Source of the DNA: Brucella daejeonensis | GTDB taxonomy: Bacteria > Pseudomonadota > Alphaproteobacteria > Rhizobiales > Rhizobiaceae | DNA: 64,000 bases | Direction of reading: 5' to 3' | Assembly (NCBI RefSeq): GCF_014199265.1 | Contig: NZ_JACIJG010000002.1 | Span: 186,001 to 250,000, forward strand | Shown here: piece after piece, positions 1 through 15,066 of the stretch | Position numbering within the stretch: position 1 is the stretch's first letter | Layout: every line of letters starts with the position of its first letter | Program-made: the position numbers and the translations under genes | Notes under the pieces: model-generated | What the model was told of the DNA's origin: nothing | Databases searched by the model: none | The model's input: the letters and a program-made list of their open reading frames with translations, nothing else

Positions 1-352
1 GACGTGTCTGCCCTGCCTGAAAGGCAATCAGCTTGCCGAGGTCTAGCGCCGAACCGCCGCCGAAGGCGATGACACCGTCATGACCGCCATCCTTGAATAC
101 CTTGACGCCGGCATAAAGGTTGCTCTCTACGGGATTGGGCTTCACATCGGAAAAGACCGCGTACTTGACGCCTGCTTCATTCAAGATTGCAAGCGTGGAG
201 GCGACAACGGGAAGCTTTGCCAGACCGGGGTCAGTCACGAAGAGCGGATTCTGAATGCCTGCGGCTTTGAGAACAGCAGGCAGTTCCTTGATACGGCCGG
301 GTCCGAACAGGACCGTGGTGGGGAAATTCCATTTGGCAGTCAAAGTAGTCAT
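1..352 (-). CDS. Iron-containing alcohol dehydrogenase (5' part only)
   Basis: Only the N-terminal 117 residues lie in the window; the gene runs off the left edge. Reading from the ATG at 352, the protein opens MTTLTAKWNFPTTVLFGPG. It reaches the family motif GGGSALDLGK near residue 100, typical of group III (iron-dependent) alcohol dehydrogenases, where it forms part of the NAD-binding site. The family oxidises alcohols to aldehydes. It is the last visible gene of a minus-strand operon, 30 bp behind an aldehyde dehydrogenase, so alcohol to aldehyde to acid steps are coupled. The substrate is not readable from sequence; the neighbouring gamma-glutamyl ligase suggests a gamma-glutamylated amino alcohol. 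Family call firm, substrate speculative. Confidence 0.88.
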   Translation of the reverse strand, partial: MTTLTAKWNFPTTVLFGPGRIKELPAVLKAAGIQNPLFVTDPGLAKLPVVASTLAILNEAGVKYAVFSDVKPNPVESNLYAGVKVFKDGGHDGVIAFGGGSALDLGKLIAFQAGQTR

Positions 353-382
353 GTCTATTGCTTTCCAGAAATGCAGCGCGGA

Positions 383-1768
383 TCAGATTTTTTCACGTAG
401 GTGGAAGGATTTCGGTCGCGTGAGGTTGCCATAGCCGATAGGGGAAAGGGCCGCGCCCTTACCGGTTTCCTTGACACCGGTCCAGACGAGCGCGGGGTCG
501 AGATAGTCGCAACGGTTCATGAACACCGTGCCCGTTTCGATACGGTCGCCAAGTGCGGCGGCATGATCTGTATCGGCGGTCCAGAGCGAGGCAGTAAGGC
601 CGTAAATACTGTCATTCATCAGCGCCAGCGCCTCTTCATCGTTACGTACCCTCATGATGCCGACAATGGGGCCGAAGCTCTCTTCGCGCATGACGCTCAT
701 CTGGTGGTCGACATCGGTGAGCACTTCCGGCGCGATGTAGGGCGAACCGGCTATATCTTGATCGACCTTCATATTTACATGCGCTTTCGCACCCTTGCGC
801 AGGGCTTCCGCCTTCTGTTCGCGGATCAGATCGGCAAAACGGGCCTGCGCCATCGGCCCGAGCGTGGTCGAGTTATCCAGCGGATTGCCGACGACATATT
901 GCCTTGTAAGTTCGATGAAACCGTCGACGAAGCGGTCATAAACGGCTTCGTGGACGTAGATGCGTTCAATACCGCAGCAGCACTGGCCAGAATTGAAGAA
1001 GGCGCCGTCCACCAGATTGGCGACGGCATGATCCAGATTGACATCAGGCAAGACATAGGCCGGGTCCTTGCCGCCCAGTTCCAGCCCCAGCGTCATGAAG
1101 GTTCCGGCAGCGGCCTTTTCGATGGCGCGTCCGCCACCGACCGAGCCGGTGAAGTTCACATGGTCTATCGTACCGGAGGCGAGCAGTTTTTCCGTGGAGG
1201 CATGATCCAGAACGACATTCTGGAAAACACCCTTCGGCAGTCCGGCTTTCTCGAACGCTTTAGCAAAGCGTTCGCCTGCCAGAAGCGTCTGCGTTGCATG
1301 TTTCAGGATGACGCTATTGCCCGCCATCAGGGCCGGAATGATCGTGTTGACGGCAGTGAGATAGGGATAATTCCATGGTGCGATCACCATCACCACGCCT
1401 AGCGGGAGATGTTTCACATAGCGGCGAAAGCCGTCCTTCTGCGCAGGAACATAAGGTTTGAGTGCCTCTTCGGCGATGTCGATCATATATTGGCCGCGTT
1501 CCTGTACGCCACCGTTTTCACCGCCATAGCGAACCGGACGTCCCATTTGCCAGGCAATTTCAGGCACGATTTCGTCCTGCATTGCTGTCAGTGCATCAAG
1601 CGCCGCACGGCAATAGCGTGTGCGTTCGGCAATGTTCAGCCGCGCCCAGTCTGATTGGGCTTCTCGTGCGGTTGCAACGGTCGAGGCGATTGCTGCCTCG
1701 TTTAAAAAGGAACGCTCGGCATAAACCGAACCGTCTATCGGAGAGATGATCTTGGCCGCGCCGCTCAT
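383..1768 (-). CDS. NAD(P)-dependent aldehyde dehydrogenase
   Basis: Full-length 461-residue ALDH-superfamily enzyme. Visible motifs in order are the oxyanion Asn in PWNYP (about residue 132), the cofactor loop FTGSVGGG (about 207), the general-base Glu in LELGGKDP (about 231) and the nucleophile Cys in GQCCC (about 264), followed by EESFGP near residue 365. It oxidises an aldehyde to the carboxylate. It lies between a glutamine-synthetase-like ligase (56 bp upstream) and an iron alcohol dehydrogenase (30 bp downstream), so it probably takes the aldehyde made by the latter. The three consecutive Cys at the active site are unusual but keep the catalytic one. The precise substrate is inferred only from context. 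Confidence 0.93.
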   Translation of the reverse strand: MSGAAKIISPIDGSVYAERSFLNEAAIASTVATAREAQSDWARLNIAERTRYCRAALDALTAMQDEIVPEIAWQMGRPVRYGGENGGVQERGQYMIDIAEEALKPYVPAQKDGFRRYVKHLPLGVVMVIAPWNYPYLTAVNTIIPALMAGNSVILKHATQTLLAGERFAKAFEKAGLPKGVFQNVVLDHASTEKLLASGTIDHVNFTGSVGGGRAIEKAAAGTFMTLGLELGGKDPAYVLPDVNLDHAVANLVDGAFFNSGQCCCGIERIYVHEAVYDRFVDGFIELTRQYVVGNPLDNSTTLGPMAQARFADLIREQKAEALRKGAKAHVNMKVDQDIAGSPYIAPEVLTDVDHQMSVMREESFGPIVGIMRVRNDEEALALMNDSIYGLTASLWTADTDHAAALGDRIETGTVFMNRCDYLDPALVWTGVKETGKGAALSPIGYGNLTRPKSFHLREKI

Positions 1769-1823
1769 CGGTAATTTCCTCTGAAACCTGTCATTTCGTC
1801 ATTTCTTACGGATTGTGCTGCGG

Positions 1824-3194
1824 TTAGTAGCGTTCGAAACCGCGATGCAGCTCCCAATCGGTTACGCGCCGATCATATTCGATCTGTTCCCAATGGGCGG
1901 TATGGACATAGTGACTGATCACCGCCTCGCCGAATGCCTCCTTCAGGAAATCGGAATTCCTGAGAGATTGCGCTGCCTCTCGCAGCGTGTAGGGAATTTC
2001 CTTGAGCTTCACGGCACTATAGGCATCTCCGACGAAAGGTTCTTCCAGTTCCAACTGCTCGTCTATCCCCTTCAGTCCGGACGCGATCAGCGCGGCGAAG
2101 GCGAGATAGGGATTGAGATCCGCACCGCCGATACGGCATTCGATGCGGATGCCTTTCGTGCCTTCACCGCAAAGGCGGAAGCCTGCCGTGCGGTTGTCCT
2201 GGCTCCACATGATCTTGGTGGGCGCGAATGTGCCTGCCTGGAAGCGTTTGTAGGAGTTGATGTAAGGCGCGAGGAAATAGGTGTAGTCGGCCGCATATTT
2301 AAGCTGGCCCGCCACCCATGAGCGCATCAGCGGCGTCATCGTGTACGGCGCTTTCGGATCGAAGAACAGCGGCTCCTTGCCATCCGCGCTCCAGATCGAA
2401 TTGTGCACATGGCTGGAACTGCCGGCCTTGCAGTAGTCATGTTTCGCCATGAAGGTGATGCACTTGCCGTGCGCTTCGGCAATTTCCTTCATTGCATTCT
2501 TCATGACGACATGGCGGTCGGCCATTTCGAGAGCTTCGGCATAACGTACGTTCAGCTCTTCCTGTCCCGGCCCCCATTCGCCCTTGGAGTTTTCAACCGG
2601 AATGCCCGCCGCGGCAAGCTGATTGCGCATGGCGCGCAGGACTGGCTCTTCCTTGGTCGTCAGATGGATGACGTAATCCTGTACATAGGGCGATGCCGTT
2701 TCCATGTCCTGCCAGCGTTTGGCGCGAGCGGTCTTGTAGGTCTCGTCAAAGAGGTAGAATTCGAGTTCGGAGGCGAAATAAGCGCGATAGCCGCGCTCAT
2801 GCAGGCGCGCGATCTGCTTTTTCAGGATTGCGCGCGGCGAGTGTGTCAGGTCGAGATGATCGTGATGACCAAGCACATCGCAAAGGACAAGGGCTGTCTT
2901 TTCCAGCCACGGGGCGAGACGCAGGGTAGAAAGGTCCGGCTTGATGACAAAATCGCCATAGCCCTTGTCCCAGCCCGCCGCTTCATAGCCCGGAACCGGC
3001 TCCATATCGATGTCGTCGGCGAGAAGATAATTGCAGCCGTGGGTCTCGTCGTAACCGGACTCCACGAAAAACTGTCCGTAGAAGCGTTTGCCGATCAGGC
3101 GTCCCTGCATGTCCACGAAACATGCGAGAACGGTGTCTATTTCGCCTTCCGCGACCGCCTTCTTTAATGCATCGAATGTTAATTGTCCGGCCAT
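1824..3194 (-). CDS. Glutamine synthetase-family gamma-glutamyl ligase (PuuA/GlnA4-like)
   Basis: 456 residues, the length of type I glutamine synthetases and of PuuA-type gamma-glutamyl-amine ligases. Metal and ATP motifs are present: ASELEF (about 142), GEWGPGQEELN (about 207), the SSSHVHNS nucleotide loop (about 261), NSYKRF (about 316) and RIECR (about 355). The adenylylation site and the NRSAS loop of true GlnA are not evident. With an ALDH, an alcohol dehydrogenase, an amidohydrolase and a transporter in the same operon, joining glutamate to an imported amine or amino alcohol is more likely than ammonia assimilation. The ATG at 3194 has a GAGGAG ribosome site. Alternative: glutamate-methylamine ligase, but no N-methylglutamate genes are near. 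Confidence 0.85.
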   Translation of the reverse strand: MAGQLTFDALKKAVAEGEIDTVLACFVDMQGRLIGKRFYGQFFVESGYDETHGCNYLLADDIDMEPVPGYEAAGWDKGYGDFVIKPDLSTLRLAPWLEKTALVLCDVLGHHDHLDLTHSPRAILKKQIARLHERGYRAYFASELEFYLFDETYKTARAKRWQDMETASPYVQDYVIHLTTKEEPVLRAMRNQLAAAGIPVENSKGEWGPGQEELNVRYAEALEMADRHVVMKNAMKEIAEAHGKCITFMAKHDYCKAGSSSHVHNSIWSADGKEPLFFDPKAPYTMTPLMRSWVAGQLKYAADYTYFLAPYINSYKRFQAGTFAPTKIMWSQDNRTAGFRLCGEGTKGIRIECRIGGADLNPYLAFAALIASGLKGIDEQLELEEPFVGDAYSAVKLKEIPYTLREAAQSLRNSDFLKEAFGEAVISHYVHTAHWEQIEYDRRVTDWELHRGFERY

Positions 3195-3225
3195 TGAATG
3201 CTTTGCTCCTCACGGGATGAAGTGA

Positions 3226-3253
3226 GAGGTACCGCGCGAATGCGCGATACCTC
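3226..3253 (-). terminator. Strong intercistronic hairpin behind the TRAP binding-protein gene
   Basis: The arms are GAGGTACCGCGC and GCGCGATACCTC, pairing over 12 bp with one wobble and a 4-nt loop. It lies between the stop of the TRAP binding protein and the start of the ligase gene. There is no U-run, so it is more likely an mRNA-stabilising or partial-attenuation hairpin than a full terminator. Confidence 0.7.
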
Positions 3254-3269
3254 CATTGTCAGGCACAAG

Positions 3270-4337
3270 TCAGGTATAACGATAAGGTGCGCCGGCATCG
3301 CGCATGGTCTTCTGGTACTTTTTGAGAATTTCGACCACTTTGGCGTTCCGCTCGCTCTTGGTGGCGATTTCGTCCCAGAACTGTTCGGCCGCTTCTTCGA
3401 TCTGCTTCCATTCGGATTCGGGGATGGTGGTCAGTTCCAGCTTGCCGCCAGTCGTGCGGTAATGCGCCTCGCCCCACCAGTACCAGTGCTGGCGATAGTA
3501 ATGCGAGGAATCCATGGCCAGCTTGAACAGGGTTTTCAGATGATCGGGGACAGCTTCCCATTTCTCCGTATTGGCAAAATAGGAACCGGCCCAGGCACCG
3601 TTGATATTGTTGGTGAGGTAGTATTTGTTGATGTCTGCCCAACCGACCGTATAGGCTTCGGTCGCACCGCACCAGGCAACGCCGTCAAGCTCGCCGGTCT
3701 GGATGGCGACTTCAATGTCTTCCCAGGGCAGCGTCACAGGGACGACGCCGAACTTGGTCAGGAAGCGACCGCCGGTCGGGAAGGTGAAGACGCGCAGGCC
3801 CTGTAGATCCTTCACGCTGCGGATCGGTTTCGTGGTCACGAAATTACATGGGTCCCACGATCCGGCGCTGAGCCATGTGACGCCCGGGATTTCCTTATAG
3901 GCTTCCTCCCATATTTCGTTCAGCCCATACCAGTTGAACAACGCCGGCACGTCCAGGCTGTAGCGCGACGCGAAGGGAAAATAGGCTCCGAAGACAGCCA
4001 CGTCCACCGGCGAGGCCATGGAGTCGTCGTCGCTTTGCGCGGCGTCGATGGTTCCGGCCTGCACGGCACGGAAAAGTTCGCCCTGTGGCACGAGCTGGTC
4101 GGACGTATAAAGCTCGATGACCATGTCGCCATTGGCGGCTTTGTTGAAAGCGTCGATAGATGGCTTGATGACATGCTCGGCAAGTGCCGGACCAGCATAG
4201 GTCTGTAGACGCCATTTGATCGGACTTTGTGCTCTGACATAAGGCGTCGCGAGCGTGCTGGCGCCAAGCGCGCCAACTGTCGTCAGTCCGGCTTTCTTGA
4301 GAAAATCGCGTTTGTTAAGCTTGCTATTCTCACTCAT
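3270..4337 (-). CDS. TRAP transporter solute-binding subunit (DctP/TakP-like)
   Basis: Periplasmic receptor of a tripartite sodium-driven importer, 355 residues from the chosen start. The signal region KRDFLKKAGLTTVGALG followed by TPYVRAQ resembles a Tat leader, with Lys-Arg in place of the twin Arg. The mature part has the DctP-family pattern (KWRLQTYAG, LVPQGELFRAVQAG, SMASPVD) seen in 2-oxoacid/TakP-type receptors. I chose ATG 4337 because GGGAG sits 7 nt upstream; the longer frame begins before this Shine-Dalgarno. The gene is followed by a strong hairpin (3226-3253). Membrane partners are immediately upstream. The ligand is unknown; TRAP receptors bind carboxylates, including zwitterionic amino compounds. 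Confidence 0.92.
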   Translation of the reverse strand: MSENSKLNKRDFLKKAGLTTVGALGASTLATPYVRAQSPIKWRLQTYAGPALAEHVIKPSIDAFNKAANGDMVIELYTSDQLVPQGELFRAVQAGTIDAAQSDDDSMASPVDVAVFGAYFPFASRYSLDVPALFNWYGLNEIWEEAYKEIPGVTWLSAGSWDPCNFVTTKPIRSVKDLQGLRVFTFPTGGRFLTKFGVVPVTLPWEDIEVAIQTGELDGVAWCGATEAYTVGWADINKYYLTNNINGAWAGSYFANTEKWEAVPDHLKTLFKLAMDSSHYYRQHWYWWGEAHYRTTGGKLELTTIPESEWKQIEEAAEQFWDEIATKSERNAKVVEILKKYQKTMRDAGAPYRYT

Positions 4338-4438
4338 GCTCATTCTCCCACTCTTGTTTGAGTTCACCCTTTATTTGTTCCGGCCCGGCCGTGTCTGGCT
4401 CTTGTCACCGGTTTATGCGCAGTCAACTGCAAGTTCCG

Positions 4439-5764
4439 TCATCGCCCAGTGTACCAGTTGGGCAGCCACATCGCGATCTGGGGAAAGATCATCAATATGA
4501 TGATGGTCAGCACCATGAGAAAGAAGAAAGGTATAATGGAGCGATAGATATCGAACATCGTGATGTCTTTGGGCGCAAGTGCCCGCATCATGAAGAGGTT
4601 ATAGCCGAAGGGCGGCGTTATATATGCGAGCTGGCAGGTGATGGTGTAGAGGATGCCGAACCAGATCGCGTTGAAACCAAGGCTCTTCACCAGCGGAATA
4701 TATAGCGGTGCGACTATGACCAGCATGGCCGTATCGTCGAGGAACATTCCAAGCACGATGAAAGAGAGCAACATCAATATCAGGATTGACCACGGAGACA
4801 GGTCGAACGTGCCAAGCAGGATGTTTTCGATCGCCTTGACCGCTCCAAGACCGTCATAGACGGACGAAAAGCACAGCGCAGCCAGAATGATCCAGAGGAA
4901 CATGCAGGTGACTGTGAGGCTGTTGCGTGTCGATGTTTCCCAGACCTGTTTTGATAGCCTTCCTGTGAAAAGGGCGGCCAGGGTCGCTAGGAGCGCACCG
5001 ACGGCGGAGCTTTCCACGAGACTTGTGACACCGGTCAGAAACAGTCCCATCATCAAGCCGAACACTACAAGCGGCAGGATACCTGCGCGTAGCGCGACAA
5101 GGCGGTCATGCCAGGTAATGCTGTCCAGTTCCTCCTGCGGCAGCGCGGGTCCGAGTTCCGGGCGCATACGGCAGCGAATATAGATATAAATGGCAAAGAG
5201 TGCGGCCATCAGAAGACCGGGGCCAATGCCTGCCAGCCAGAGCTGCAATACCGGCTGGCGGGCGATCATGGCGTAGAGAACCAGTACCACGCTGGGCGGG
5301 ATCAGGATGCCGAGCGAACTGCCCGCCTGAATGACGCCTGTTACCATGACCTTGCTGTAGCCCCGCTTCAGGAGTTCCGGCAGGGCAACGGTGGCGCCGA
5401 TAGCCATGCCCGCGACGCTCAGCCCGTTCATGCATGAGATGAGCACCATCAGGCCGATGGTCCCAAGCGCCAGCCCCCCGCGAATGCCGCCGAACCAGAC
5501 GTGAAACATGCGGTAGAGATTGCTGGCGATGCCGGATTCCGACAGCATGTAGCCCATGAAGACGAAGAACGGCACAGTAATGAGCGGATACCAGTTCAGC
5601 ACCGCGAAGGTGGCATTGTAGGGCATCTCGAAAGAGCCTTTGCCCCACAAAAGAATAGCCGCAAGCGAGCCGACAAAGCCGATGACGCCAAAGACACGCT
5701 GCCCAGTCATGAGCAATACCATCATGGTGGCGAACATGAAGAGGGTGATGAGTTCCGAACTCAT
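4439..5764 (-). CDS. TRAP transporter large permease (DctM)
   Basis: A 441-residue polytopic inner-membrane protein with about 12 hydrophobic segments, the DctM/IT-superfamily ion-coupled channel of a TRAP importer. Typical stretches are GTIGLMVLISCMNGLSVAG near 120, GSSLGILIPPS near 150 and ITCQLAYITPPFG near 380. The ATG overlaps the stop of the small permease by 4 bp (5761-5764), so the two are translationally coupled, as expected for subunits needed in fixed ratio. The binding protein follows about 100 bp downstream. Confidence 0.95.
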   Translation of the reverse strand: MSSELITLFMFATMMVLLMTGQRVFGVIGFVGSLAAILLWGKGSFEMPYNATFAVLNWYPLITVPFFVFMGYMLSESGIASNLYRMFHVWFGGIRGGLALGTIGLMVLISCMNGLSVAGMAIGATVALPELLKRGYSKVMVTGVIQAGSSLGILIPPSVVLVLYAMIARQPVLQLWLAGIGPGLLMAALFAIYIYIRCRMRPELGPALPQEELDSITWHDRLVALRAGILPLVVFGLMMGLFLTGVTSLVESSAVGALLATLAALFTGRLSKQVWETSTRNSLTVTCMFLWIILAALCFSSVYDGLGAVKAIENILLGTFDLSPWSILILMLLSFIVLGMFLDDTAMLVIVAPLYIPLVKSLGFNAIWFGILYTITCQLAYITPPFGYNLFMMRALAPKDITMFDIYRSIIPFFFLMVLTIIILMIFPQIAMWLPNWYTGR

Positions 5765-6312
5765 ATGTGGTGTCCCTCCTCAATCGCCGGTCCCGCTATC
5801 GTATCGATCGGTTTTCCGCGTAACGATGCCCAGTCCTTGAGGAAATTCGAGACACATTGCAGCAGCAGGAGAAAAATGCCGAGGGTCATTATGAGTTTGA
5901 TTGGCCAGAGGAGTGGCGCCCAGGCTGTGTAATTCTTCTGGCCGTAGGTGAGGGCATACCCGGTTGAGGAGATGCCGCCAGCAACCATCACACCTAGGTA
6001 GAAGATGATGAAAAGGATCGTGATCATATCGGTGATCATCTTCCGGCGCGGAGGGAGACGGTCGAAGAACAGATCCATGCGCACATGCGCGCCCTGCTGC
6101 ATTGCGTAGGCCCCACCCAGCAGATAATAGGCCGAGAGCAGAAACTGCGACATTTCCAGTACCCAATTGACCGGCGCGCCCAGGATCACGCGCGAAAACG
6201 TCGAATAGAGCAGACCGGCGCCAAGCACGAAGAAGAGATACATCGCGAAACGGCCGACATAATAATTCAGTGCATCAACATACTTGACGAATAGTCTGAT
6301 CGGTTTCGGCAT
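5761..6312 (-). CDS. TRAP transporter small permease (DctQ)
   Basis: 183 residues with four hydrophobic segments (about 20-45, 55-75, 95-115, 135-155). The family motif for DctQ is visible around residues 35-75: RVILGAPVNWVLEMSQFLL followed by GGAYAMQQGAHVRMD. It assembles with the large permease that overlaps its 3' end. The upstream gene, the amidohydrolase-fold enzyme, ends only 12 bp before it, so transport and catabolism are in one transcript. Confidence 0.94.
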   Translation of the reverse strand: MPKPIRLFVKYVDALNYYVGRFAMYLFFVLGAGLLYSTFSRVILGAPVNWVLEMSQFLLSAYYLLGGAYAMQQGAHVRMDLFFDRLPPRRKMITDMITILFIIFYLGVMVAGGISSTGYALTYGQKNYTAWAPLLWPIKLIMTLGIFLLLLQCVSNFLKDWASLRGKPIDTIAGPAIEEGHHI

Positions 6313-6324
6313 TTTCCGGCTCCT

Positions 6325-7113
6325 TCAGGCTTTCTGTTCCGTGTTCGCGAGTGTTTGCGCGACATGCTTCAATATGTTTGCAAGCCTTTCCGCCCAAGCG
6401 ATCTGTGTCTGGGAACTGGCGATTTCGTCATTACGGATCTCCACCATTACACATGGTGCGTTTCGCGGGCGGGCGTGTCGTTCCAGCGTGTAATAGACGC
6501 GGTCTGCCGGCGAATAGGGCTCATTAAGGCCGACATTGAGATTTGCGTCCCTTTGCAGCTCAGCAATCAGAGGATTTGCAATCCGGTCATCCTCGTCATG
6601 GATGATGCCGATTTGCCAGGGGCGGGCTACGCCGCGATAAACGGGCGTGAAAGAGTGGATCGTCACGACCCATGAGGGCAGACCGCGTGCAGCGCGAGCC
6701 GCGATGATCTCTTCGACGCGTGTATGAAAAGGACGATGCGAAAGATCGATCCGCGCCGTGCGTTCCGTTGTCGTCAGATTATGATTTCCCGGAACGATAG
6801 TGGTCTCGCTGATCTCGGGAATGAGATCGGGTGCATCAAGCGGGCGGTTGCAGTCGATTAACAGCCGCGAAAGACCGCTTTCGACCAGCGGTGCACCGAG
6901 CGACAATGCAAGGTGTCGTGCGACGTCGATTGCACCTGGATCCCAGGCGATATGCGCCTTCAATGCTTCGACACCGAGGCCCAATGCATTAAAACGCTCG
7001 GGGATAAAATTGGATGCGTGCTCGCAAACGAGCAGATAAGGACTCATCCCATCCGCATTGAAAACAGAAACAGGTTCGCACGAAGCTGTGCGACATGCTC
7101 GCTCGTTCGTCAT
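6325..7113 (-). CDS. N-formylglutamate amidohydrolase-family hydrolase
   Basis: 262 residues, the length and fold signature of the zinc-dependent N-formylglutamate amidohydrolase family. Visible motifs are VCEHASNFIPERF (about 29), DPGAIDVARHLA (about 58), VVTIHSFTPV (about 149) and VMVEIRND (about 225), carrying the metal-binding His and Glu. The canonical reaction is hydrolysis of N-formylglutamate to glutamate and formate in histidine breakdown. No other hut gene is nearby and the gene heads a TRAP/ligase/dehydrogenase operon, so here it may instead release glutamate from a gamma-glutamyl conjugate. That role is an inference. The N-terminal 22 residues before MSPYLL could be non-coding if that later Met is used. 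Confidence 0.88.
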   Translation of the reverse strand: MTNERACRTASCEPVSVFNADGMSPYLLVCEHASNFIPERFNALGLGVEALKAHIAWDPGAIDVARHLALSLGAPLVESGLSRLLIDCNRPLDAPDLIPEISETTIVPGNHNLTTTERTARIDLSHRPFHTRVEEIIAARAARGLPSWVVTIHSFTPVYRGVARPWQIGIIHDEDDRIANPLIAELQRDANLNVGLNEPYSPADRVYYTLERHARPRNAPCVMVEIRNDEIASSQTQIAWAERLANILKHVAQTLANTEQKA

Positions 7114-7240
7114 TCTGTTCGTTCCCCGCGCTGTAACTTATGTTACGTTTTTTCGGTTTATGCGCTATTGCGGATTATTTGATACGCCCTATGATTATTT
7201 GTCAAACGCAAATTCGCCTGAATTCAAAAAGAGCCATTGA
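7114..7240. promoter_or_regulatory. Divergent promoter region with a GTAAC-TTAT-GTTAC dyad
   Basis: This is the spacer between the minus-strand TRAP/ligase operon and the plus-strand RpiR regulator. A perfect inverted repeat, GTAAC-N4-GTTAC, lies at 7133-7146, 20 bp upstream of the operon's first start codon. Two copies of GATTATTTG occur at about 7172 and 7192. A single RpiR-family regulator reading outward from the same spacer makes the dyad a plausible operator. No clean -35/-10 pair stands out. Confidence 0.4.
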
Positions 7241-8083
7241 ATGGAAAAAACAGCATCGGTGAACGCAAGCGTTGCAGAACTGATCAATGAGCGGATCGAT
7301 ACGATGCCCGCGGGTGAGCGAAGGGCGGCACAGACGCTGATCGTTAATTATCCGATGTTGGGTCTGAAGACGGTGGCGGAGTTTTCAGTGCAGGCTGGAG
7401 TCAGTTCGCCTACGATCCTGCGCTTCGTCAATCGCCTCGGCTTCCTGAATTACCCGGATTTTCAGGCCCGTCTGCAGGACGAACTGGCGGCGCAGCTTCA
7501 GTCGCCGCACAATCGCAACGAACAGCCGGGAGCAGGCACGGAAGCGGTCTATCCAGCGGTTGAACACACGATGGAAAATATACGGGAAAGCTTCCGTCAT
7601 CTGGGCGAAAAGCAATTGCAGCAGGTCGTAGCAGCCCTCGGCAATGCGAAGGGAGACGTTTATCTCATCGGCGGGCGTTTTACCGATTCAATCGCGCAAT
7701 ATATGGCGGCGCATATGACGGTCATTCGTCCGCACGTGTTTCATCTCGGCGGTCAGGAAAGCGCCTGGCGCGACCGTCTTCTGGACATGGGCAAGCGCGA
7801 CGTGCTCGTCGTCTTCGACATTCGCCGCTATCAGGACAGTCTTTTGATGTTGGCAGAGAAAGCGCGGGCGCGGGGTGTGGAAGTGGTTCTCGTCACAGAT
7901 CAGTGGCTGTCGCCCATTGCCCGTGTTGCGCGTCATGTGCTCGCCGGACGTACCACTGTACCATCTGCGTGGGATTCGTCGGCAGCGCTTTTCGTGCTCG
8001 CGGAAACGATCATTCGCGAAATGACGCGTATGCTCGAAAAAGATAGTGCTGCGCGTATCGCGGAGCTTGAAGGGCTGCGCTGA
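7241..8083 (+). CDS. MurR/RpiR-family transcriptional regulator
   Basis: 280 residues. The N-terminal 80 residues form an RpiR-type helix-turn-helix (TVAEFSVQAGVSSPTILRFVNRLGF around 47-71). Residues about 115-270 form a SIS sugar-isomerase-like ligand domain (VYLIGGRFTDSIAQYMAAHM, then VVFDIRRYQDSLLMLAEKA). SIS domains usually sense phosphorylated or acidic metabolites. It is divergent from the TRAP/gamma-glutamyl operon across 127 bp, so it is the likely local regulator. Whether it represses or activates cannot be seen. A short GCCCG/CGGGC hairpin follows the stop codon. Confidence 0.93.
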   Translation: MEKTASVNASVAELINERIDTMPAGERRAAQTLIVNYPMLGLKTVAEFSVQAGVSSPTILRFVNRLGFLNYPDFQARLQDELAAQLQSPHNRNEQPGAGTEAVYPAVEHTMENIRESFRHLGEKQLQQVVAALGNAKGDVYLIGGRFTDSIAQYMAAHMTVIRPHVFHLGGQESAWRDRLLDMGKRDVLVVFDIRRYQDSLLMLAEKARARGVEVVLVTDQWLSPIARVARHVLAGRTTVPSAWDSSAALFVLAETIIREMTRMLEKDSAARIAELEGLR

Positions 8084-8378
8084 TTATTCCAGCCCGCAGG
8101 CGGGCAAAAACAGCGCTGAAACTTTCTTTCGATCCGATCCAGATCGAACGGTTCGTCCTTGTTCAGTTCCATCATGCTGCGGACTTGCGCTTCGAAGTCG
8201 ACATAGTGCTGCGTGACAGCCCAGATATGTGTCTGAAAGAGAAGGGACAATCTGACCGATCGGTCCAACTAAATTTAAAAATATCAGAATTGCATGCAAT
8301 TAAGATGTGAATCCGTGACCGATAGGCCACGCGGCGGGCAGCGACGCGTTTATGATGTGCGGAAATTTCGGAGGTCCT
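8084..8378. other. Intergenic stretch, no confident gene
   Basis: 295 bp between the RpiR gene and the flavoprotein. A 7-7-7 inverted repeat (TTCGATC / GATCGAA) lies at 8128-8148. A minus-strand frame across 8095-8268 reads protein-like for about 45 residues but continues without stop into the antisense of the regulator and has no ribosome site; it may be a gene remnant. No convincing promoter was identified. Confidence 0.4.
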
Positions 8379-9611
8379 ATGGACAACAGATGCATTATCA
8401 TCGGGGCCGGTCACGCCGGTTCGCAGGCCGCGATCAGCCTTCGCCAGGAAGGCTATGCAGGCGAAATCGTTCTTATCAACGATGAGACGGATATCCCCTA
8501 TCATAAGCCCCCGCTCTCCAAGTCTTATCTCAAGGCGCCGGAAGCGGGCGGCCTGGTCCTGCGTCCAGAAGCGAGCTATCGCGACAGCAATATCGAGTTG
8601 CTTTTTGGTACCCGTGTGGATGCGGTTTCGATTGCCGACCGCACGGTGACGCTGGATGACGGTCGTGTGCTGCGATGGTCGGACTTGATCTTCGCGACGG
8701 GCGCGCGGGCGCGTATCCCCGACCTGCCGGGCATCGGACTTGAAGGCGTCGTCACGCTGAGACGCATGGAAGATGCGCGTCGTATCGCCACCCTGATGCC
8801 GGACGTGCAGGATGTCGTGATTGTCGGGGGAGGCTTCATCGGTCTTGAAATGGCACATAGCGCTATCGCGCTTGGCAAGAAGACGGTTCTGATCGAGGCA
8901 GCCCCGCGCGTTCTGGGCCGCTCGGTCGCGACGCATATTTCCAGCCATGTAGAGAGCCGCAGCCGCGCTGTCGGTATTACGCTTCTGACGGGGCTCGGCG
9001 TGCGCGCCATTGAAGGTGAAAACGGTCGCGTAGCGAGTGTGAAGACGACGGATGGAACCGCATTTCCTGCCGATATGGTGGTGATTGGTACGGGGGCCGT
9101 GCCGAATGTGGAACTTGCGATGCAAGCCGGGCTTGAGGTCGATAACGGCATCGTCGTTGACGAGTGTTTGAGAACATCCGCTGATCGCGTCTATGCCATT
9201 GGCGATTGCGTGAGCTACGATCACTTTCATGCCGGTTGTCGCGTGCGACTGGAATCGGTGCAGAACGCTACCGATCAGGCAAAACATGTGGCGCGCACCA
9301 TCGTCGGGCGGGGCGCCCCTTATCAGGAGGTCGCCTGGTTCTGGTCCGATCAGGGCGATATGAAGCTTCAGACTGCCGGTATTTCCTTCGATGCGGACCG
9401 ACATATCCTTTCGGGCAATCCGGACGGCAATGCTTTCTCGGTTTTCCATTTCAAGGGTGACAGGCTGGTGGCGGTCGATTCCATTAACCGTCCGGCGGAC
9501 CATATGATCGCCCGACGTCTGCTTGCAGCAAACATCAGCCCAAGCGAAGAGGATATTGCGGCGGGGGCGCCGCGTCTTAAAGAATTGATCGCGACTGCGC
9601 CTAAATACTGA
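8379..9611 (+). CDS. FAD-dependent NAD(P)H-ferredoxin reductase (rhodocoxin/putidaredoxin reductase type)
   Basis: 410 residues. It has an N-terminal FAD dinucleotide fold (IIGAGHAGSQAA, residues 6-17), an internal NAD fold (VVIVGGGFIGLEMA, about 147-160), the FAD-closing motif VYAIGDC (about 270) and the reductase C-terminal domain (FWSDQGDMKLQTAG, about 318). Such enzymes pass electrons from NAD(P)H to a ferredoxin serving a cytochrome P450 or Rieske oxygenase. ATG 8379 is chosen because GGAGG lies 5 nt upstream; the ATGs at 8352 and 8355 lie before it. No ferredoxin or oxygenase gene is adjacent, so it works with a partner elsewhere. It converges on the small-RNA locus downstream. Confidence 0.92.
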   Translation: MDNRCIIIGAGHAGSQAAISLRQEGYAGEIVLINDETDIPYHKPPLSKSYLKAPEAGGLVLRPEASYRDSNIELLFGTRVDAVSIADRTVTLDDGRVLRWSDLIFATGARARIPDLPGIGLEGVVTLRRMEDARRIATLMPDVQDVVIVGGGFIGLEMAHSAIALGKKTVLIEAAPRVLGRSVATHISSHVESRSRAVGITLLTGLGVRAIEGENGRVASVKTTDGTAFPADMVVIGTGAVPNVELAMQAGLEVDNGIVVDECLRTSADRVYAIGDCVSYDHFHAGCRVRLESVQNATDQAKHVARTIVGRGAPYQEVAWFWSDQGDMKLQTAGISFDADRHILSGNPDGNAFSVFHFKGDRLVAVDSINRPADHMIARRLLAANISPSEEDIAAGAPRLKELIATAPKY

Positions 9612-9715
9612 GGATTGACGCTAACTGTTATGAAACGTCTGCGACCGCGGGACATGGCGGTGCCTTTTGCGGCCAATAGCCAGGGTATCAAGGTGATCGC
9701 GGCGCGGTAGTTCCC

Positions 9716-9845
9716 ACACGAAAACACCCGTCGCGGGAGGAAGCGACGGGTGTTTATGGGGAAGACCGGACTGGGAGGAGGATATCCGGCCTTGAATCAC
9801 CGAGGAAATGGGAGGAGGAGAAAACACCTCGGTGATATTCCGAAA
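9716..9845 (-). ncRNA. CCUCCUCCC-loop small RNA (CcsR/Cuckoo or alpha-r14-like), copy 1
   Basis: On the minus strand three hairpins follow each other. The first has arms at 9827-9836 and 9797-9806 (ATCACCGAGG pairing) with CUCCUCCUCCC in the loop. The second has arms at 9785-9789 and 9766-9770 with loop CCUCCUCCC. The third has a perfect 13-bp stem (9743-9755 / 9722-9734), a CCUCC-containing loop and a short U-rich tail. Unpaired anti-Shine-Dalgarno CCUCCUCCC loops define the CcsR/Cuckoo RNA and alpha-r14 families of alphaproteobacteria. The RNA begins about 70 nt behind a DUF1127 gene on the same strand. In Rhodobacter, CcsR RNAs are cut from a DUF1127 transcript. Ends are approximate. Confidence 0.8.
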
Positions 9846-9913
9846 ACTGTGGGACCGCGCGGTTTATGAGGCTCACGATCCTTGAAGAAGGCCGATGCCT
9901 TCCGGAGGCGCTA

Positions 9914-10060
9914 TTAGCGAGCGGCGGCCTTGCGTGCGACGAACGGGATTTCCGAAGGCAGAATTCCGAGGTCGTTCAGTTCGCGTGGGCTCAGGCGGCT
10001 CAGTTCGTTCACGGTGTTGCGGTAACGGCGCCAGTTGTTGTACGAGCGGATCAGGTTCAT
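9914..10060 (-). CDS. DUF1127 (YjiS-like) small protein
   Basis: A 48-residue arginine-rich protein starting MNLIRSYNNWRRYRNTVNEL and continuing with the family signature SRLSPRELNDLGI, then ending AARK-rich. It has the size and motif of the short DUF1127 class. Members are small RNA-binding or stress-linked proteins; the Rhodobacter one (CcaF1) is encoded just before the CcsR small RNAs, exactly the arrangement seen here with the RNA at 9716-9845. A GGTGAGAGAA purine stretch precedes the ATG. Upstream, CTATAT lies at about 10100 and matches the alphaproteobacterial -10, but the -35 is weak (CTCCAA at 17 bp). Function in this species is inferred from the family. Confidence 0.88.
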   Translation of the reverse strand: MNLIRSYNNWRRYRNTVNELSRLSPRELNDLGILPSEIPFVARKAAAR

Positions 10061-10557
10061 TTCTCTCACCTAGTAAATCTTATCTCTTTGTTGCAAACGG
10101 CATATAGGTCGTAAGCATTTCGAATTGGAGAGACAGATTTGCATAGCTGCAATGCGTTAAAGCCTGTCAGTTTCACGCCTTTTTCGCTGCTCGGTCATGA
10201 TGCGATCATAATCCTCTGTCCGAGTGGGGAAATGGCCTCAATTCAGGCAGTTTCAGCGGCTGATCGGTTAAGCACTCTTTAAAATCGGTGTTCCGGCGAA
10301 TCTCTTTTGCAAGAACGACATAGCGTACGCTCGTTCCTGGAACGGATACGCCGAAAGGCGGTCTTTTGTTCATGTAAGGACACACATCGACAGAAGAATA
10401 TAAGTTCGACCGCTATGGGGTTTGATTTTGTCGCATAAGTCCGCGGAATCGTCGGTTTGAGGCAACAATTCCGCATGACTCTCGGGCCGGATTGAGTTAA
10501 GGGAGTTGCGTCGGGTGCAGAAGCGTCGCGTTGCGTGAGCGTTTTTGCACTGTCTGT
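10061..10557. other. Intergenic region between DUF1127 gene and glycine riboswitch
   Basis: About 500 bp with no gene I can support. It must hold the divergent promoters of the DUF1127/small-RNA unit (minus) and of the gcv operon (plus). ATGAT-GCG-ATCAT, a perfect 5-3-5 dyad, lies near 10198-10210 and could be a regulator site. A 65-residue minus-strand frame at 10279-10476 is Cys/Arg-rich, lacks a ribosome site and is taken as chance. Confidence 0.45.
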
Positions 10558-10735
10558 CTGCGGGAGAGAGCCGTTAAGGCCGCCGAAGGGGAAATCGCCC
10601 GAAATCTCTCAGGTACAAGGAACCGCAGATGGATAAGGCGACTCTGGAAAGTCGGGGGAAACCCTGCGCCGAAGGTGTAAGTATAGCTTAACGGCTATGC
10701 GAGTCTCTCAGGCCTGAGACAGAGGGGCGCGAAGC
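10558..10735 (+). ncRNA. Tandem glycine riboswitch
   Basis: Two consecutive glycine aptamers. The first is closed by CTGCGG (10558-10563) pairing with CCGCAG (10623-10628) and contains GGGAGAGAG, CCGAAGGGG and CUCUCAGG elements. The second spans about 10632-10735 with GACUCUGGA, CGCCGAAGGUG and CUCUCAGGCC ... GACAGAGGG. This is the classic gcv leader: glycine binding turns on glycine-cleavage genes. It ends about 43 nt before the gcvT start. Confidence 0.97.
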
Positions 10736-10777
10736 AACCGCATTTTGCGGGGGCATACGTGCGACTCTGGAGTTGTT

Positions 10778-11881
10778 ATGGGCGATACCGCACATTTGAA
10801 GACCCTGCCTTTGCAGGACATGCATGAACAGGCTGGCGCGCGTTTCGGCGGCTTTGCCGGCTGGAACATGCCGATCACCTATCCGCTGGGCGTGATGAAG
10901 GAACATCTTCATACGCGTGACCATGTGGGCCTTTTCGACATTTCCCACATGAAGCTGATCGAAGTTTCGGGCGCAGAAGCAGCCGACATGCTGGCGACCA
11001 CGTGCCCGCTCGATCCCGCTTCTCTCAAAACGGGACAGTCGAAATATACCTTCTTCCTCAATGATAAGGGCGGCATTCTTGACGACCTGATCGTCACGCG
11101 GCTTGGCGAAGACCGTTTCATGGTTGTCGCCAATGCGGGCAATGCGGATGCCGATGTCGAGCATCTTTATGAAGCTGCCGAGGGCAGGAAAGTTAAAGTC
11201 GATCCGCTCGACCGCGTATTTCTGGCCATTCAGGGCCCGGAAGCTGAAGCCGTCATCAAGGATGCCGGTTTGCCTGCGGCTGCGGAACTCTCCTTCATGA
11301 GCGGCTTTGAGCCGAAAGCCGGTTGGTTCATGACCCGTTCGGGCTATACCGGCGAAGACGGTTTTGAAGTCGGCCTGCCTGCCGATGAGGCTCGCGAACT
11401 GGCGGCAAAGCTGCTTGCTGACGAGCGCGTCGAATGGATTGGCCTTGCCGCGCGCGATAGTCTGCGCCTTGAGGCCGGCCTTTGCCTGCATGGTAATGAC
11501 ATCACGCCGGAAACCGATCCGGTTTCGGCAGGTCTGACATGGGCAATCACCAAATCGGTGCGCGAAAAGGCAGCCTTCAATGGCGCCAAGGCCGTGCTGG
11601 ACGCTCTCGCCAAGGGTGCGGCTGCAAAGCGCGTCGGCCTGAAGCCGGAAGGTCGCCAGCCGGTGCGCGGTGGCGATCTTTTCGATGAAAGCGGCCGTCA
11701 GGTCGGCACCGTCACTTCGGGTGGTTTTGGTCCATCTGCCGGTTTCCCGGTCGCCATGGGCTATGTCGAGGCAAGCCTCGCTATCCCCGGCACCCGTATT
11801 TTCGCAGAGATTCGCGGCAACAAGGTTCCCGTTGACGTCTCAGCACTTCCCTTCACACCGCATCGCTATCGCAAAGGATGA
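10778..11881 (+). CDS. gcvT: Aminomethyltransferase, glycine cleavage T protein
   Basis: 367 residues. T protein takes the aminomethyl group from lipoyl-H protein, releases ammonia and makes 5,10-methylene-tetrahydrofolate. Family stretches are visible: [13 protein letters not shown] (about 26), [10 protein letters not shown] (about 50), [24 protein letters not shown] (around 175-198, given here only as landmarks) and [13 protein letters not shown] (about 230). The start at 10778 follows CTGGAG at 5 nt; an in-frame ATG at 10745 lies next to the riboswitch and has no ribosome site. First gene of gcvTHP; the next start is 5 bp past its stop. Controlled by the tandem glycine riboswitch. Confidence 0.97.
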
Positions 11882-11886
11882 TTTCC

Positions 11887-12255
11887 ATGGCCAATATCCT
11901 GTTCACCGAAGATCATGAATGGATCAGCGTCGAAGGTGGCGTCGCCACCGTCGGCATCACCATCCACGCGCAGGAACAGTTGGGCGATCTCGTTTTCGTC
12001 GAGCTGCCAGAAGTAGGTCGCACCGTTTCCAAGGGCGAGGGCGTCGTGGTTGTGGAGTCGGTCAAGGCCGCTTCCGACGTCTATGCGCCGATTGATGGCG
12101 AAGTGGTTGAAGTCAATGACGCCACCGCTTCCGATCCGTCGCTGGTCAATCAGGCCGCCGAAGGCGCTGGCTGGCTGTTCAAGCTGAAGCTTTCCGACGA
12201 GGGTCAGCTTGCCGGTCTTCTCGACAAGGCTGGTTACGACAAGCTGGTAGGATAA
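11887..12255 (+). CDS. gcvH: Glycine cleavage H protein
   Basis: 122 residues, the lipoyl carrier that shuttles the aminomethyl group from P to T protein and hands reducing equivalents to lipoamide dehydrogenase. The lipoylated Lys lies in [15 protein letters not shown], about residue 60. The start MANILFTED is preferred over the ATG three codons earlier because AAGGA lies at a workable distance from it. It is packed between gcvT (5 bp) and gcvP (3 bp). Confidence 0.97.
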
Positions 12256-12258
12256 GAA

Positions 12259-15066
12259 ATGACTGCTCTTCCTTTTGTTACCCGTCATATCGGGCCAAGG
12301 CTGGAAGACGAGCGCGCCATGCTGGCCGCGCTCGGTCTTCCGTCCATGGAAACTCTTATCACTCAGGCAGTCCCGGCCTCGATCCGGCTCAACCGCGCGC
12401 TTGATCTGCCCGCTCCGCTTGGCGAGGCAGAAGCCCTTGCCGAGCTTGGCGAGATCATGGGCCGCAATGTGGTGAAGAAGAGCTTCATCGGCGCGGGCTA
12501 TCACGGCACGCATGTGCCGCCGGTTATCCAGCGCAATATGTTTGAAAATCCGGCATGGTACACGGCCTATACGCCGTATCAGTCGGAAATCAGTCAGGGT
12601 CGTCTGGAACTTCTGTTCCATTTCCAGACCCTCGTGGCTGAACTGACCGGCTTGCCGGTTGCCTGCGCTTCGCTGCTTGATGAAGCGACCGCCGTGGCCG
12701 AAGCCATCGGTGTTGCCGTTCGCCATCACCGCGACAAGCGCAGCCGCGTGCTGCTGGCAGGCGATCTGCATCCACAGACGGTCGATGTGATCAACACCCG
12801 CGCCGAACCGCAGGGCTGGCAGATTGAAACCGGTAGCGATGTCGATGACGCCACGGCGGCAATCATTGTGCCGTGGCCGGATACGCGCGGCGTCTATGGC
12901 GACTTTGCCAAGGTCATCGCCGATGCCAAGGCCAAGGGCGCTCTGGTGATCGCCGTTGCCGATCCGCTGGCGTTGACTGTCATGGAAGCGCCTGCGAAAT
13001 GGGGCGCAGATATGGCCGTTGGCTCCATGCAGCGCTATGGCGTGCCGATGGGCTTTGGTGGCCCGCATGCCGCTTATCTTGCCGTTTCCGAACCGCTAAC
13101 CCGTATCATTCCGGGCCGCATCATCGGTCAGTCGCTGGATGCGCATGGCCGTGCCGCCTATCGCTTAGCGCTCCAGACACGCGAGCAGCATATCCGCCGC
13201 GACAAGGCGACCTCGAATATCTGCACCGCGCAGGCGCTTTTGGCCAATATGGCTGTGGCTTACGCGATCTGGCATGGACCTTCCGGCTTGCAGGCGATTG
13301 CCACGCGTATTGCCACGCTTGCCGCCCGTTTTGCCGCTGGTCTGAAAGCTGCCGGGATCGAATTTGCAGGTGAAAGCCTGTTTGATACGGTCACGATTAA
13401 GGTTGCAGGCAAGGCCGCGAAAATCGCTGCGGAAGCCGACAAGGGCGGTCGCCTGATCCGCATCATCGATGCGGATACGGTTGGCGTCAATTTTGACGAA
13501 ACCTCCACGGAAGACGATCTGGCGGCATTGGCCGTTCTGTTTGGCGCAAAGCCGGTGGATGGCGACAAGCTTCTCGTTCCCGGAAAGGGGCGCGGCGAAG
13601 GTTTTCTGACGCAGGAAGTCTTCCATAGCCACCGTTCCGAAACCGAGATGATGCGCTTCCTGCGTCGTCTGGCCGACAAGGATCTGGCGCTTGATCGCGC
13701 GATGATCCCGCTTGGCTCCTGCACGATGAAGCTGAATGCGGCTGCTGAAATGATGCCGGTGAGCTGGAACACGGTTGCCAATCTGCATCCCTTCGCACCT
13801 TCAGAACAGGTGCAGGGCTATGCGAAGATGACCTCGGATCTGGCGGGCTGGCTTTGCGAAGTCACCGGTTTTGCGGGCGTGTCTTTGCAGCCAAATGCCG
13901 GTAGCCAGGGCGAATATGCCGGTCTTCTGGCCATCCGCCATTATCATCAGGCACGCGGCGAGGGACATCGCAACATCTGCCTCATCCCGTCTTCCGCGCA
14001 TGGCACCAATCCGGCCAGCGCCTCGATGGCTGGCATGAGCGTGGTCGTGGTCAATTGCCGCCCGGATGGAGACATCGATCTCGACGATCTCAAGGCCAAG
14101 GCCGAGAAGCATCGCGATAATCTTGCCGCCTTCATGATTACCTATCCGTCCACCTATGGCGTGTTCGAGGAAGGCATCAAGACCTTCTGCGAAATCGTGC
14201 ATGAGAATGGCGGTCAGGTCTATTTCGACGGTGCGAACCTCAATGCGCTGGTTGGCCTTGCGCGTCCGTGCGACATCGGCGCCGATGTCTGCCACATGAA
14301 CCTGCACAAGACCTTCTGCATTCCACATGGCGGCGGCGGACCGGGCGTCGGTCCGATCGGCGTGGCCAAGCATCTGGTGCCTTATCTTCCGGGGCATGTG
14401 GAAGCAGGTTCGAAACACGCCGTTGCGGCAGCGGAGTTCGGCAGCGCATCCATTCTGGTCATTACGTGGATGTATATCCGCATGATGGGTGGTGCTGGCC
14501 TGAAGCAGGCGACTGAGGCAGCGATCCTCAATGCCAATTATATCGCGCACCGCCTGAAGGACGCCTATCCGATCCTGTTCACCGGCGCGCATGAGCGCGT
14601 GGCGCATGAGTGCATCGTGGATACGCGCGTTCTGAAAGACAGTGCGGGCATCACCGTGGACGATGTGGCCAAGCGCCTGATCGACTATGGCTTCCATGCG
14701 CCTACCATGTCGTGGCCGGTTGCCGGTACCTTGATGATCGAGCCGACCGAGTCCGAACCGAAGTCGGAAATCGATCGTCTTTGCGATGCAATGCTGGCCA
14801 TTGCGGGCGAGGCGAAGAAGGTTGCCGATGGCGTCTGGCCTGCCGACGACAATCCGCTGGCCAATGCGCCACATACGGTTGCTGATACGCTTGCCAGCGA
14901 TTGGACGCATCCTTACACGCGTGAAGAAGCAGTCTTCCCGGCAAGCGCCATCAATGGCGATTTCGACCCGACAGCGAAATATTGGCCACCGGTCAGCCGC
15001 GTGGACAATGTCGGTGGCGACAGAAACCTTATCTGCACCTGCCCGCCAGTTGCTGCCTATGGCTGA
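12259..15066 (+). CDS. gcvP: Glycine dehydrogenase (decarboxylating), P protein
   Basis: 935 residues, the single-chain P protein with fused alpha- and beta-like halves. It decarboxylates glycine with pyridoxal phosphate and loads the aminomethyl group on H protein. The PLP Lys is in [16 protein letters not shown], about residue 687. Other family landmarks are [15 protein letters not shown] (about 76) and LGSCTMKLN (about 485). It is co-transcribed with gcvTH under the glycine riboswitch. It would consume any glycine produced by the amino-alcohol route suggested for the upstream operon. Confidence 0.97.

What the first reader, a model, noticed from the sequence alone, without database searches (positions are those of the whole stretch)
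1..7240. TRAP-linked gamma-glutamylation operon with alcohol and aldehyde dehydrogenases: a candidate amino-alcohol catabolic route
Seen: one minus-strand operon holds an N-formylglutamate-amidohydrolase-fold enzyme, TRAP Q, M and P subunits, a PuuA/GlnA4-like ligase, an ALDH and an iron alcohol dehydrogenase, facing an RpiR gene. Known: PuuA and Streptomyces GlnA4 glutamylate polyamines or ethanolamine; oxidation and hydrolysis follow. Inference: a TRAP-imported amino alcohol is capped with glutamate, its hydroxyl oxidised to the acid, and the amidohydrolase frees glutamate and the product (glycine if the substrate is ethanolamine). I do not know this set as a described pathway, and pairing it with TRAP and this amidohydrolase is unusual.
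Basis: partly seen in the sequence, partly recalled or inferred. Interest (0 to 1): 0.72.

Follow-up and report, generated by a model that had tools for sequence, protein, structure and literature searches.

The report
Known ethanolamine-to-glycine operon, TRAP-fed
This gene cluster very probably lets the bacterium import ethanolamine, a piece of membrane lipid, tag it with glutamate, oxidise it and split it into glycine and glutamate; the same cluster is already described in other bacteria, so it is a good reading of the sequence but not a new system.

Summary
In detail: a minus-strand operon of an FGase-fold amidohydrolase, DctQ, DctM, DctP, a glutamine-synthetase-like ligase, an ALDH and an Fe-ADH (cut by the window start), facing an RpiR gene. 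The proposed chemistry is very probably right, with ethanolamine as substrate and glycine plus glutamate as products. The novelty is not: the same eight genes in the same order are described in Phaeobacter sp. MED193 (PMC10132767), after earlier work on Chromohalobacter salexigens. The window's receptor is a close relative of the solved ethanolamine receptor Csal_0678 (4uab), keeps its ligand-holding Glu and lacks the carboxylate-binding Arg of ordinary TRAP receptors. The ligase lacks the flap Glu seen in glutamine synthetases. Of 80 named relatives, 34 carry all eight genes in the same order and orientation. Eighteen Halomonas-type loci carry a second version, with another ligase and a class-I amidotransferase in place of the FGase-fold hydrolase; the two hydrolases occur together in 0 of 80. 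That exchange supports the hydrolase assignment and is the only part I did not find in print. The host is of the Brucella/Ochrobactrum lineage. Interest is low.

The parts
7241..8083 (+). RpiR-family regulator (HTH_6 + SIS), divergent from the operon
   Evidence: in 43 of 80 named relatives together with the FGase-fold gene
7133..7146 (-). operator-like inverted repeat GTAAC-ATAA-GTTAC in the divergent gap (candidate RpiR site)
   Evidence: exact in the window and in 23 of 43 relatives' gaps; one place in the whole genome with up to 1 mismatch; inferred function
7177..7205 (-). promoter-like TTGACA-17-TCAAAT upstream of the operon
   Evidence: read from the sequence, similar in relatives; not scored by the consensus scan
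6325..7113 (-). FGase-fold amidohydrolase, predicted gamma-glutamylglycine amidohydrolase (GGAH)
   Evidence: PF05013; misses the HutG cut-off, 19.7 vs 278.75 bits
5761..6312 (-). DctQ, TRAP small permease (EtoV type)
   Evidence: PF04290
4439..5764 (-). DctM, TRAP large permease (EtoW type)
   Evidence: PF06808
3270..4367 (-). DctP, ethanolamine receptor (EtoX type)
   Evidence: best PDB match 4uab/4xf5, 512.7 bits, next 65.4; Glu237 in 81 of 81, no Arg at position 194 in 81 of 81
1824..3194 (-). glutamine-synthetase-like ligase, predicted ethanolamine gamma-glutamylase
   Evidence: PF00120; below the GlnA, type III and PuuA cut-offs; flap Glu replaced by Phe323
383..1768 (-). aldehyde dehydrogenase, predicted to make gamma-glutamylglycine
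   Evidence: PF00171; reaches no NCBIfam cut-off among the 25 families shown of 44
1..352 (-). iron alcohol dehydrogenase, N-terminal part; the rest lies left of the window (G000:C2:185180-186000)
   Evidence: PF00465

Best explanation
An orthologue of the published eto-type gamma-glutamylation operon for ethanolamine. The receptor (EtoX, DctP) binds ethanolamine in the periplasm and DctQM imports it. The ligase joins it to the gamma-carboxyl of glutamate using ATP. The Fe-ADH and then the ALDH oxidise the hydroxyl to aldehyde and acid, giving gamma-glutamylglycine. The FGase-fold enzyme splits this into glycine and glutamate, so the cap is recycled. RpiR probably represses the set from the divergent gap until substrate or an intermediate is present. 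Shown by others in relatives: ethanolamine binding by the receptor and induction of the proteins on phosphoethanolamine. Inferred here: everything about this genome's copy, the order of the oxidations, and the mode of RpiR.
For: Same genes and order as MED193_10021-10056 (PMC10132767). Receptor closest to Csal_0678, 512.7 bits against 65.4 for the next, which PMC12410723 says binds ethanolamine through Glu220; the aligned Glu237 is invariant in 81 of 81. The Arg that TRAP receptors use for carboxylates is Phe (70) or Tyr (11) in 81 of 81 (PMC4646407). Flap Glu of glutamine synthetases replaced. 34 of 80 relatives keep all eight genes in order; of 16 genomes whose transporter stands without a linked ligase, 14 hold a 59-76% identical ligase elsewhere. 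EutB not found in the genome.
Against: No activity was measured for this genome's proteins. The published Phaeobacter figure calls the pathway predicted, and in Phaeobacter only the receptor was assayed among these proteins in the parts I read. The hydrolase's substrate rests on position and gene exchange. 19 of 80 loci have neither hydrolase within the flank, and the genome of L094 holds no close ligase. The consensus promoter scan found no promoter.
Confidence: 0.93

Rival explanations
1. The operon serves mainly another small amino alcohol (alaninol, serinol, 1-amino-2-propanol) by the same chemistry, with ethanolamine a side substrate.
For: The same chemistry would work on them. I recall that 4xf5, the second entry with the 4uab sequence, holds 2-amino-1-propanol; no call showed this.
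Against: In Phaeobacter the receptor binds ethanolamine with Kd 7.9 uM and the proteins rise on phosphoethanolamine. Amino alcohols other than ethanolamine were not among the analogues named in the section I read, so this is not excluded there.
Confidence: 0.04
2. A polyamine (Puu-type) route: the ligase glutamylates putrescine or a similar diamine.
For: The ligase matches the gamma-glutamylputrescine synthetase model with 185 bits, and PuuA-type pathways also use an ALDH and a gamma-glutamyl hydrolase (recalled).
Against: The curated cut-off of that model is 650 bits. A diamine needs no alcohol dehydrogenase. The receptor belongs to the ethanolamine type.
Confidence: 0.01
3. Unrelated functions side by side: an ordinary glutamine synthetase, a HutG-like deformylase and a carboxylate TRAP transporter.
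For: General family names would suggest this.
Against: GlnA, type III and HutG cut-offs are missed widely (237.9 vs 429.15; 226.4 vs 469.6; 19.7 vs 278.75). Flap Glu lost; TRAP Arg lost; gene order kept in 34 of 80 loci.
Confidence: 0.01

Closest known systems
Phaeobacter sp. MED193 ethanolamine operon, MED193_10021-10056 (Westermann et al. 2023, PMC10132767; abstract, outline, passages and section 9 seen)
   Same: RpiR, GGAH, EtoV, EtoW, EtoX, ETAGA, GAADDH, GETADH: the same eight genes in the same order
   Different: Marine Roseobacter rather than Brucella/Ochrobactrum lineage; I had no sequence of it to align
Chromohalobacter salexigens ethanolamine pathway (Csal_0678 receptor, 4uab; Gerlt 2016 and Vetting 2015, not held, known through)
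   Same: PF00120 ligase, PF00465 ADH, PF00171 ALDH, PF05013 hydrolase; receptor 512.7 bits to the window's
   Different: Gene order there was not seen by me
Streptomyces coelicolor GlnA4 ethanolamine pathway, SCO1610-SCO1615 (PMC6529630, passages)
   Same: Ethanolamine glutamylation, then oxidation and hydrolysis to glycine plus glutamate (proposed)
   Different: Amino-acid permease gene instead of TRAP (absent in S. coelicolor itself), short-chain dehydrogenase, other regulator
Puu putrescine pathway of E. coli (recalled)
   Same: Glutamate cap, oxidation, hydrolysis
   Different: Diamine substrate, no ADH or TRAP; PuuA-type cut-off not met here

Membership tests
eto-type ethanolamine gamma-glutamylation operon (PMC10132767) | eight genes RpiR/GGAH/DctQ/DctM/DctP/ligase/ALDH/Fe-ADH in this order | tested here: met
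eto-type ethanolamine gamma-glutamylation operon (PMC10132767) | receptor of the Csal_0678/EtoX type: platform Glu kept, TRAP Arg absent | tested here: met
   the mapping of Glu220 to chain position 217 is by nearest Glu
eto-type ethanolamine gamma-glutamylation operon (PMC10132767) | receptor binds ethanolamine | not testable with these tools
   shown for the Phaeobacter protein, not for this one
eto-type ethanolamine gamma-glutamylation operon (PMC10132767) | ligase, ADH, ALDH and hydrolase act on the gamma-glutamyl intermediates | not testable with these tools
   inferred from position and families
Glutamine synthetase (GlnA, type III) | NCBIfam equivalog cut-off | tested here: not met
   237.9 vs 429.15 and 226.4 vs 469.6 bits
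Glutamine synthetase (GlnA, type III) | flap Glu (GYEAP) | tested here: not met
   GTFAP here; Phe 36, Tyr 1, Trp 1 of 38
PuuA gamma-glutamylputrescine synthetase | NCBIfam NF045547 cut-off | tested here: not met
   185 vs 650 bits
HutG N-formylglutamate deformylase | NCBIfam TIGR02017 cut-off | tested here: not met
   19.7 vs 278.75 bits; PF05013 fold family met with 152 bits
Eut ethanolamine ammonia-lyase route | EutB (PF06751) in the genome | tested here: not met
   0 matches; the control rang in 1 of 14 genomes, E. coli; EutC not searched

The most novel reading that the evidence does not exclude
The eto operon exists in two separately assembled versions that share the TRAP transporter, ALDH and Fe-ADH but differ in the rest: ligase GS-A with an FGase-fold hydrolase and RpiR in one; ligase GS-B (29-34% identical) with a class-I amidotransferase-type hydrolase and LysR in the other. 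The exchange would show that two unrelated folds do the same last step, hydrolysis of gamma-glutamylglycine.
Probability: 0.65. Interest if true: 0.3.

Novelty: already known. Interest (0 to 1): 0.15.

Why it matters
It gives this lineage a way to use ethanolamine, a common membrane-lipid headgroup, as carbon and nitrogen without the Eut enzymes (EutB not found), ending in glycine and glutamate. The pathway itself is in print. What is added is confirmation in another lineage, site residues, a candidate operator, and a natural exchange of hydrolases that makes the least-tested step easy to test.

Tried and rejected
Rejected: a Puu-type polyamine route, a plain glutamine synthetase with HutG and a carboxylate TRAP, and the Eut route. 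Also dropped: the idea that the neighbouring ferredoxin reductase (8352-9611) and glycine-cleavage genes belong to the system because glycine is the product. Reductase, GcvT and GcvH were detected in 0 of the 80 named loci (flanks up to 10 kb, some cut short by contig ends), so that neighbourhood is not conserved. The consensus promoter scan found nothing. Three founding reports on C. salexigens were not seen: two look-ups failed and a 2015 meeting abstract was not looked up.

Limits of the counts. The 80 named loci are the best 80 of 216 relatives found and are related in groups, so they are not independent. Presence was scored by tblastn at E <= 1e-10 with at least 45% of the query covered; contigs that end early count as missing genes (L044, L066, L067, L068, L074, L077 among them). 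For the order check matches of 34% identity or less were left out, which removed a weak second DctM in L060 and an extra ligase-like gene in L088. L032 shows no ALDH match at that coverage; not looked into. Of 23 loci with no ligase in the flank, 16 were followed into their genomes; the other 7 (L057, L066, L067, L068, L070, L072, L074) were not.
Full report
1. What is there. The window and the adjoining stretch of its contig confirm a minus-strand operon: FGase-fold enzyme (6325-7113), DctQ (5761-6312), DctM (4439-5764), DctP (3270-4367), GS-like ligase (1824-3194), ALDH (383-1768) and Fe-ADH (from 352 leftwards, cut by the window edge; the whole 390-aa frame is L002 13181-14353). An RpiR gene (7241-8083) faces away. 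Pfam agrees with each name. The window is G000:C2:186001-250000 of a 4.64-Mb genome. The closest named relatives of the receptor are Brucella and Ochrobactrum records, so the host belongs to that lineage. The species was not determined, and the tool warns that records of the window's own genome may be left out.

2. The receptor points to ethanolamine. Among solved structures its best match is the sequence of 4uab and 4xf5 at 512.7 bits; the next scores 65.4. PMC12410723 (passages) identifies 4uab as Csal_0678 with ethanolamine bound, amine and hydroxyl held by Glu220. The Glu nearest to 220 in the chain is at position 217. It aligns with Glu237 here, which is invariant in 81 of 81 receptors (window plus 80 loci). 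PMC4646407 (passages) says that TRAP receptors select carboxylates through an Arg and that Csal_0678 lacks it. By the alignment with 4yzz that site is Phe194 in the window; it is Phe in 70 and Tyr in 11 of 81.

3. The ligase is not an ordinary glutamine synthetase. It misses the NCBIfam cut-offs for GlnA, type III glutamine synthetase and gamma-glutamylputrescine synthetase by wide margins. Its nearest solved relatives are 11zs (973.8 bits) and 5dm3 (560), both labelled only as glutamine synthetases; the next scores 180.7. In three glutamine synthetase sequences printed (two of them nearly the same) the flap reads GYEAP; here it reads GTFAP. The Glu position is Phe in 36, Tyr in 1 and Trp in 1 of 38 aligned ligases. 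That this Glu serves ammonia binding is recalled.

4. The pathway is in print. PMC10132767 (abstract, outline, passages and section 9) describes in Phaeobacter sp. MED193 one operon of RpiR, gamma-glutamylglycine amidohydrolase, EtoV, EtoW, EtoX, ethanolamine gamma-glutamylase, an aldehyde dehydrogenase for the gamma-glutamyl aldehyde and a gamma-glutamylethanolamide dehydrogenase: the order found here. The receptor bound ethanolamine with Kd 7.9 uM. Five of the eight proteins are in its Table 2 as raised on phosphoethanolamine. Its Figure 5 legend calls the pathways predicted; its text says that closely related genes were demonstrated in C. salexigens and A. tumefaciens (its reference 32, not held). 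PMC9397018 (passages) lists PF00120, PF00465, PF00171 and PF05013 for C. salexigens.

5. Spread and conservation. In a sample of the host's class 36 of 289 genomes, the host included, hold the receptor at E <= 1e-70. Of 80 named loci (the best of 216), 34 have all eight genes in the same order and orientation. In these 34 the median identity to the window is 61% for the hydrolase, 71% for DctQ, 79% for RpiR and 84-89% for the other five. Twenty-three of the 80 have no ligase in the flank; 16 of these were followed into their genomes. Fourteen of 16 hold a ligase 59-76% identical to the window's. The genome of L101 holds only a 31% relative and that of L094 none above 34%. Eight of the 14 ligases were fetched (L104-L111): in 7 of 8 the ALDH is beside the ligase, and in 4 (L104-L107) a second RpiR, 65-67% identical to the window's, faces it. 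So the pathway stays in the genome where the operon is split.

6. A second version. In 18 of 80 loci, all from Halomonas, Billgrantia, Litchfieldella or Modicisalibacter records, the transporter, ALDH and Fe-ADH stand with another ligase (GS-B, PF00120, 29-34% identical to the window's) and a class-I amidotransferase-like protein (PF00117). Seventeen of the 18 also have a LysR gene; the other, L077, lies on a contig that starts within DctM. The FGase-fold gene is in 43 loci, the amidotransferase in 18, neither in 19, both in none. The simplest reading is that both cut gamma-glutamylglycine. This is inference, and because the loci are related in groups the exclusion counts for few independent events. 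Three loci have ligase, ALDH and ADH but neither hydrolase in the flank (L083, L089, L095), which this reading leaves open. Two literature searches that could have shown this exchange (the second listed 10 of 22 papers) showed none in their listings; apart from the papers cited here, the listed ones were not opened.

7. Regulation. The gap between RpiR and the hydrolase holds GTAAC-ATAA-GTTAC at 7133-7146, read on the minus strand. It is exact in 23 of 43 relatives' gaps: those whose RpiR is 76% or more identical, and none of the 20 at 70% or less. Close relatives share much of this gap anyway, so conservation alone is weak evidence. In the whole genome it occurs once with up to one mismatch; the reversed control pattern occurs three times. 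It lies downstream of TTGACA-17-TCAAAT, as a repressor site would. The scan for consensus promoters found none. Operator and repression are inferred.

8. Verdict. A well-kept member of a described pathway in a genome where EutB was not found. Confidence in the mechanism is high, novelty low.

Noticed in passing
L002 9361-12470 (left of the window, beyond the ADH): An ABC transporter with an OpuAC-type (glycine betaine/choline family) binding protein lies about 0.7 kb beyond the ADH; the binding protein is in the flank of 8 of 80 named loci. Choline and ethanolamine are both lipid headgroups.
   Followed up: partly
window 8352-15066: Beyond RpiR stand a ferredoxin-reductase-like FAD protein, gcvT, gcvH and a 935-aa frame (probably gcvP, not tested). 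Glycine is the predicted product of the operon, but reductase, GcvT and GcvH are in 0 of 80 relatives' flanks.
   Followed up: yes
L104-L107: Split operons: ligase and ALDH lie apart from the transporter, facing a second RpiR closer to the window's (65-67%) than the one beside the transporter (38%).
   Followed up: partly
window 3270-4367 (N-terminus of DctP): The receptor begins with a KRDFLKK stretch that resembles a twin-arginine signal with Lys in place of the first Arg; its Arg20 and Phe22 are in at least 80 of 81, and the solved relative is named after that signal.
   Followed up: no
L039: A record titled Bacillus subtilis SK6B4 carries the operon 84-88% identical in DctM, DctP, ligase, ALDH and ADH, like the Pseudochrobactrum records; the title is probably wrong.
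   Followed up: no
PMC6529630: The Streptomyces cluster's orf5 is called a glutamine amidotransferase in a figure legend, while SCO1615 is put in the formylglutamate amidohydrolase family in the discussion; if the first is right, Streptomyces resembles version B.
   Followed up: no
window 6325-7113: The hydrolase is the least conserved gene of the set (median 61% in 34 loci, against 84-89% for DctM, DctP, ligase, ALDH and ADH).
   Followed up: no
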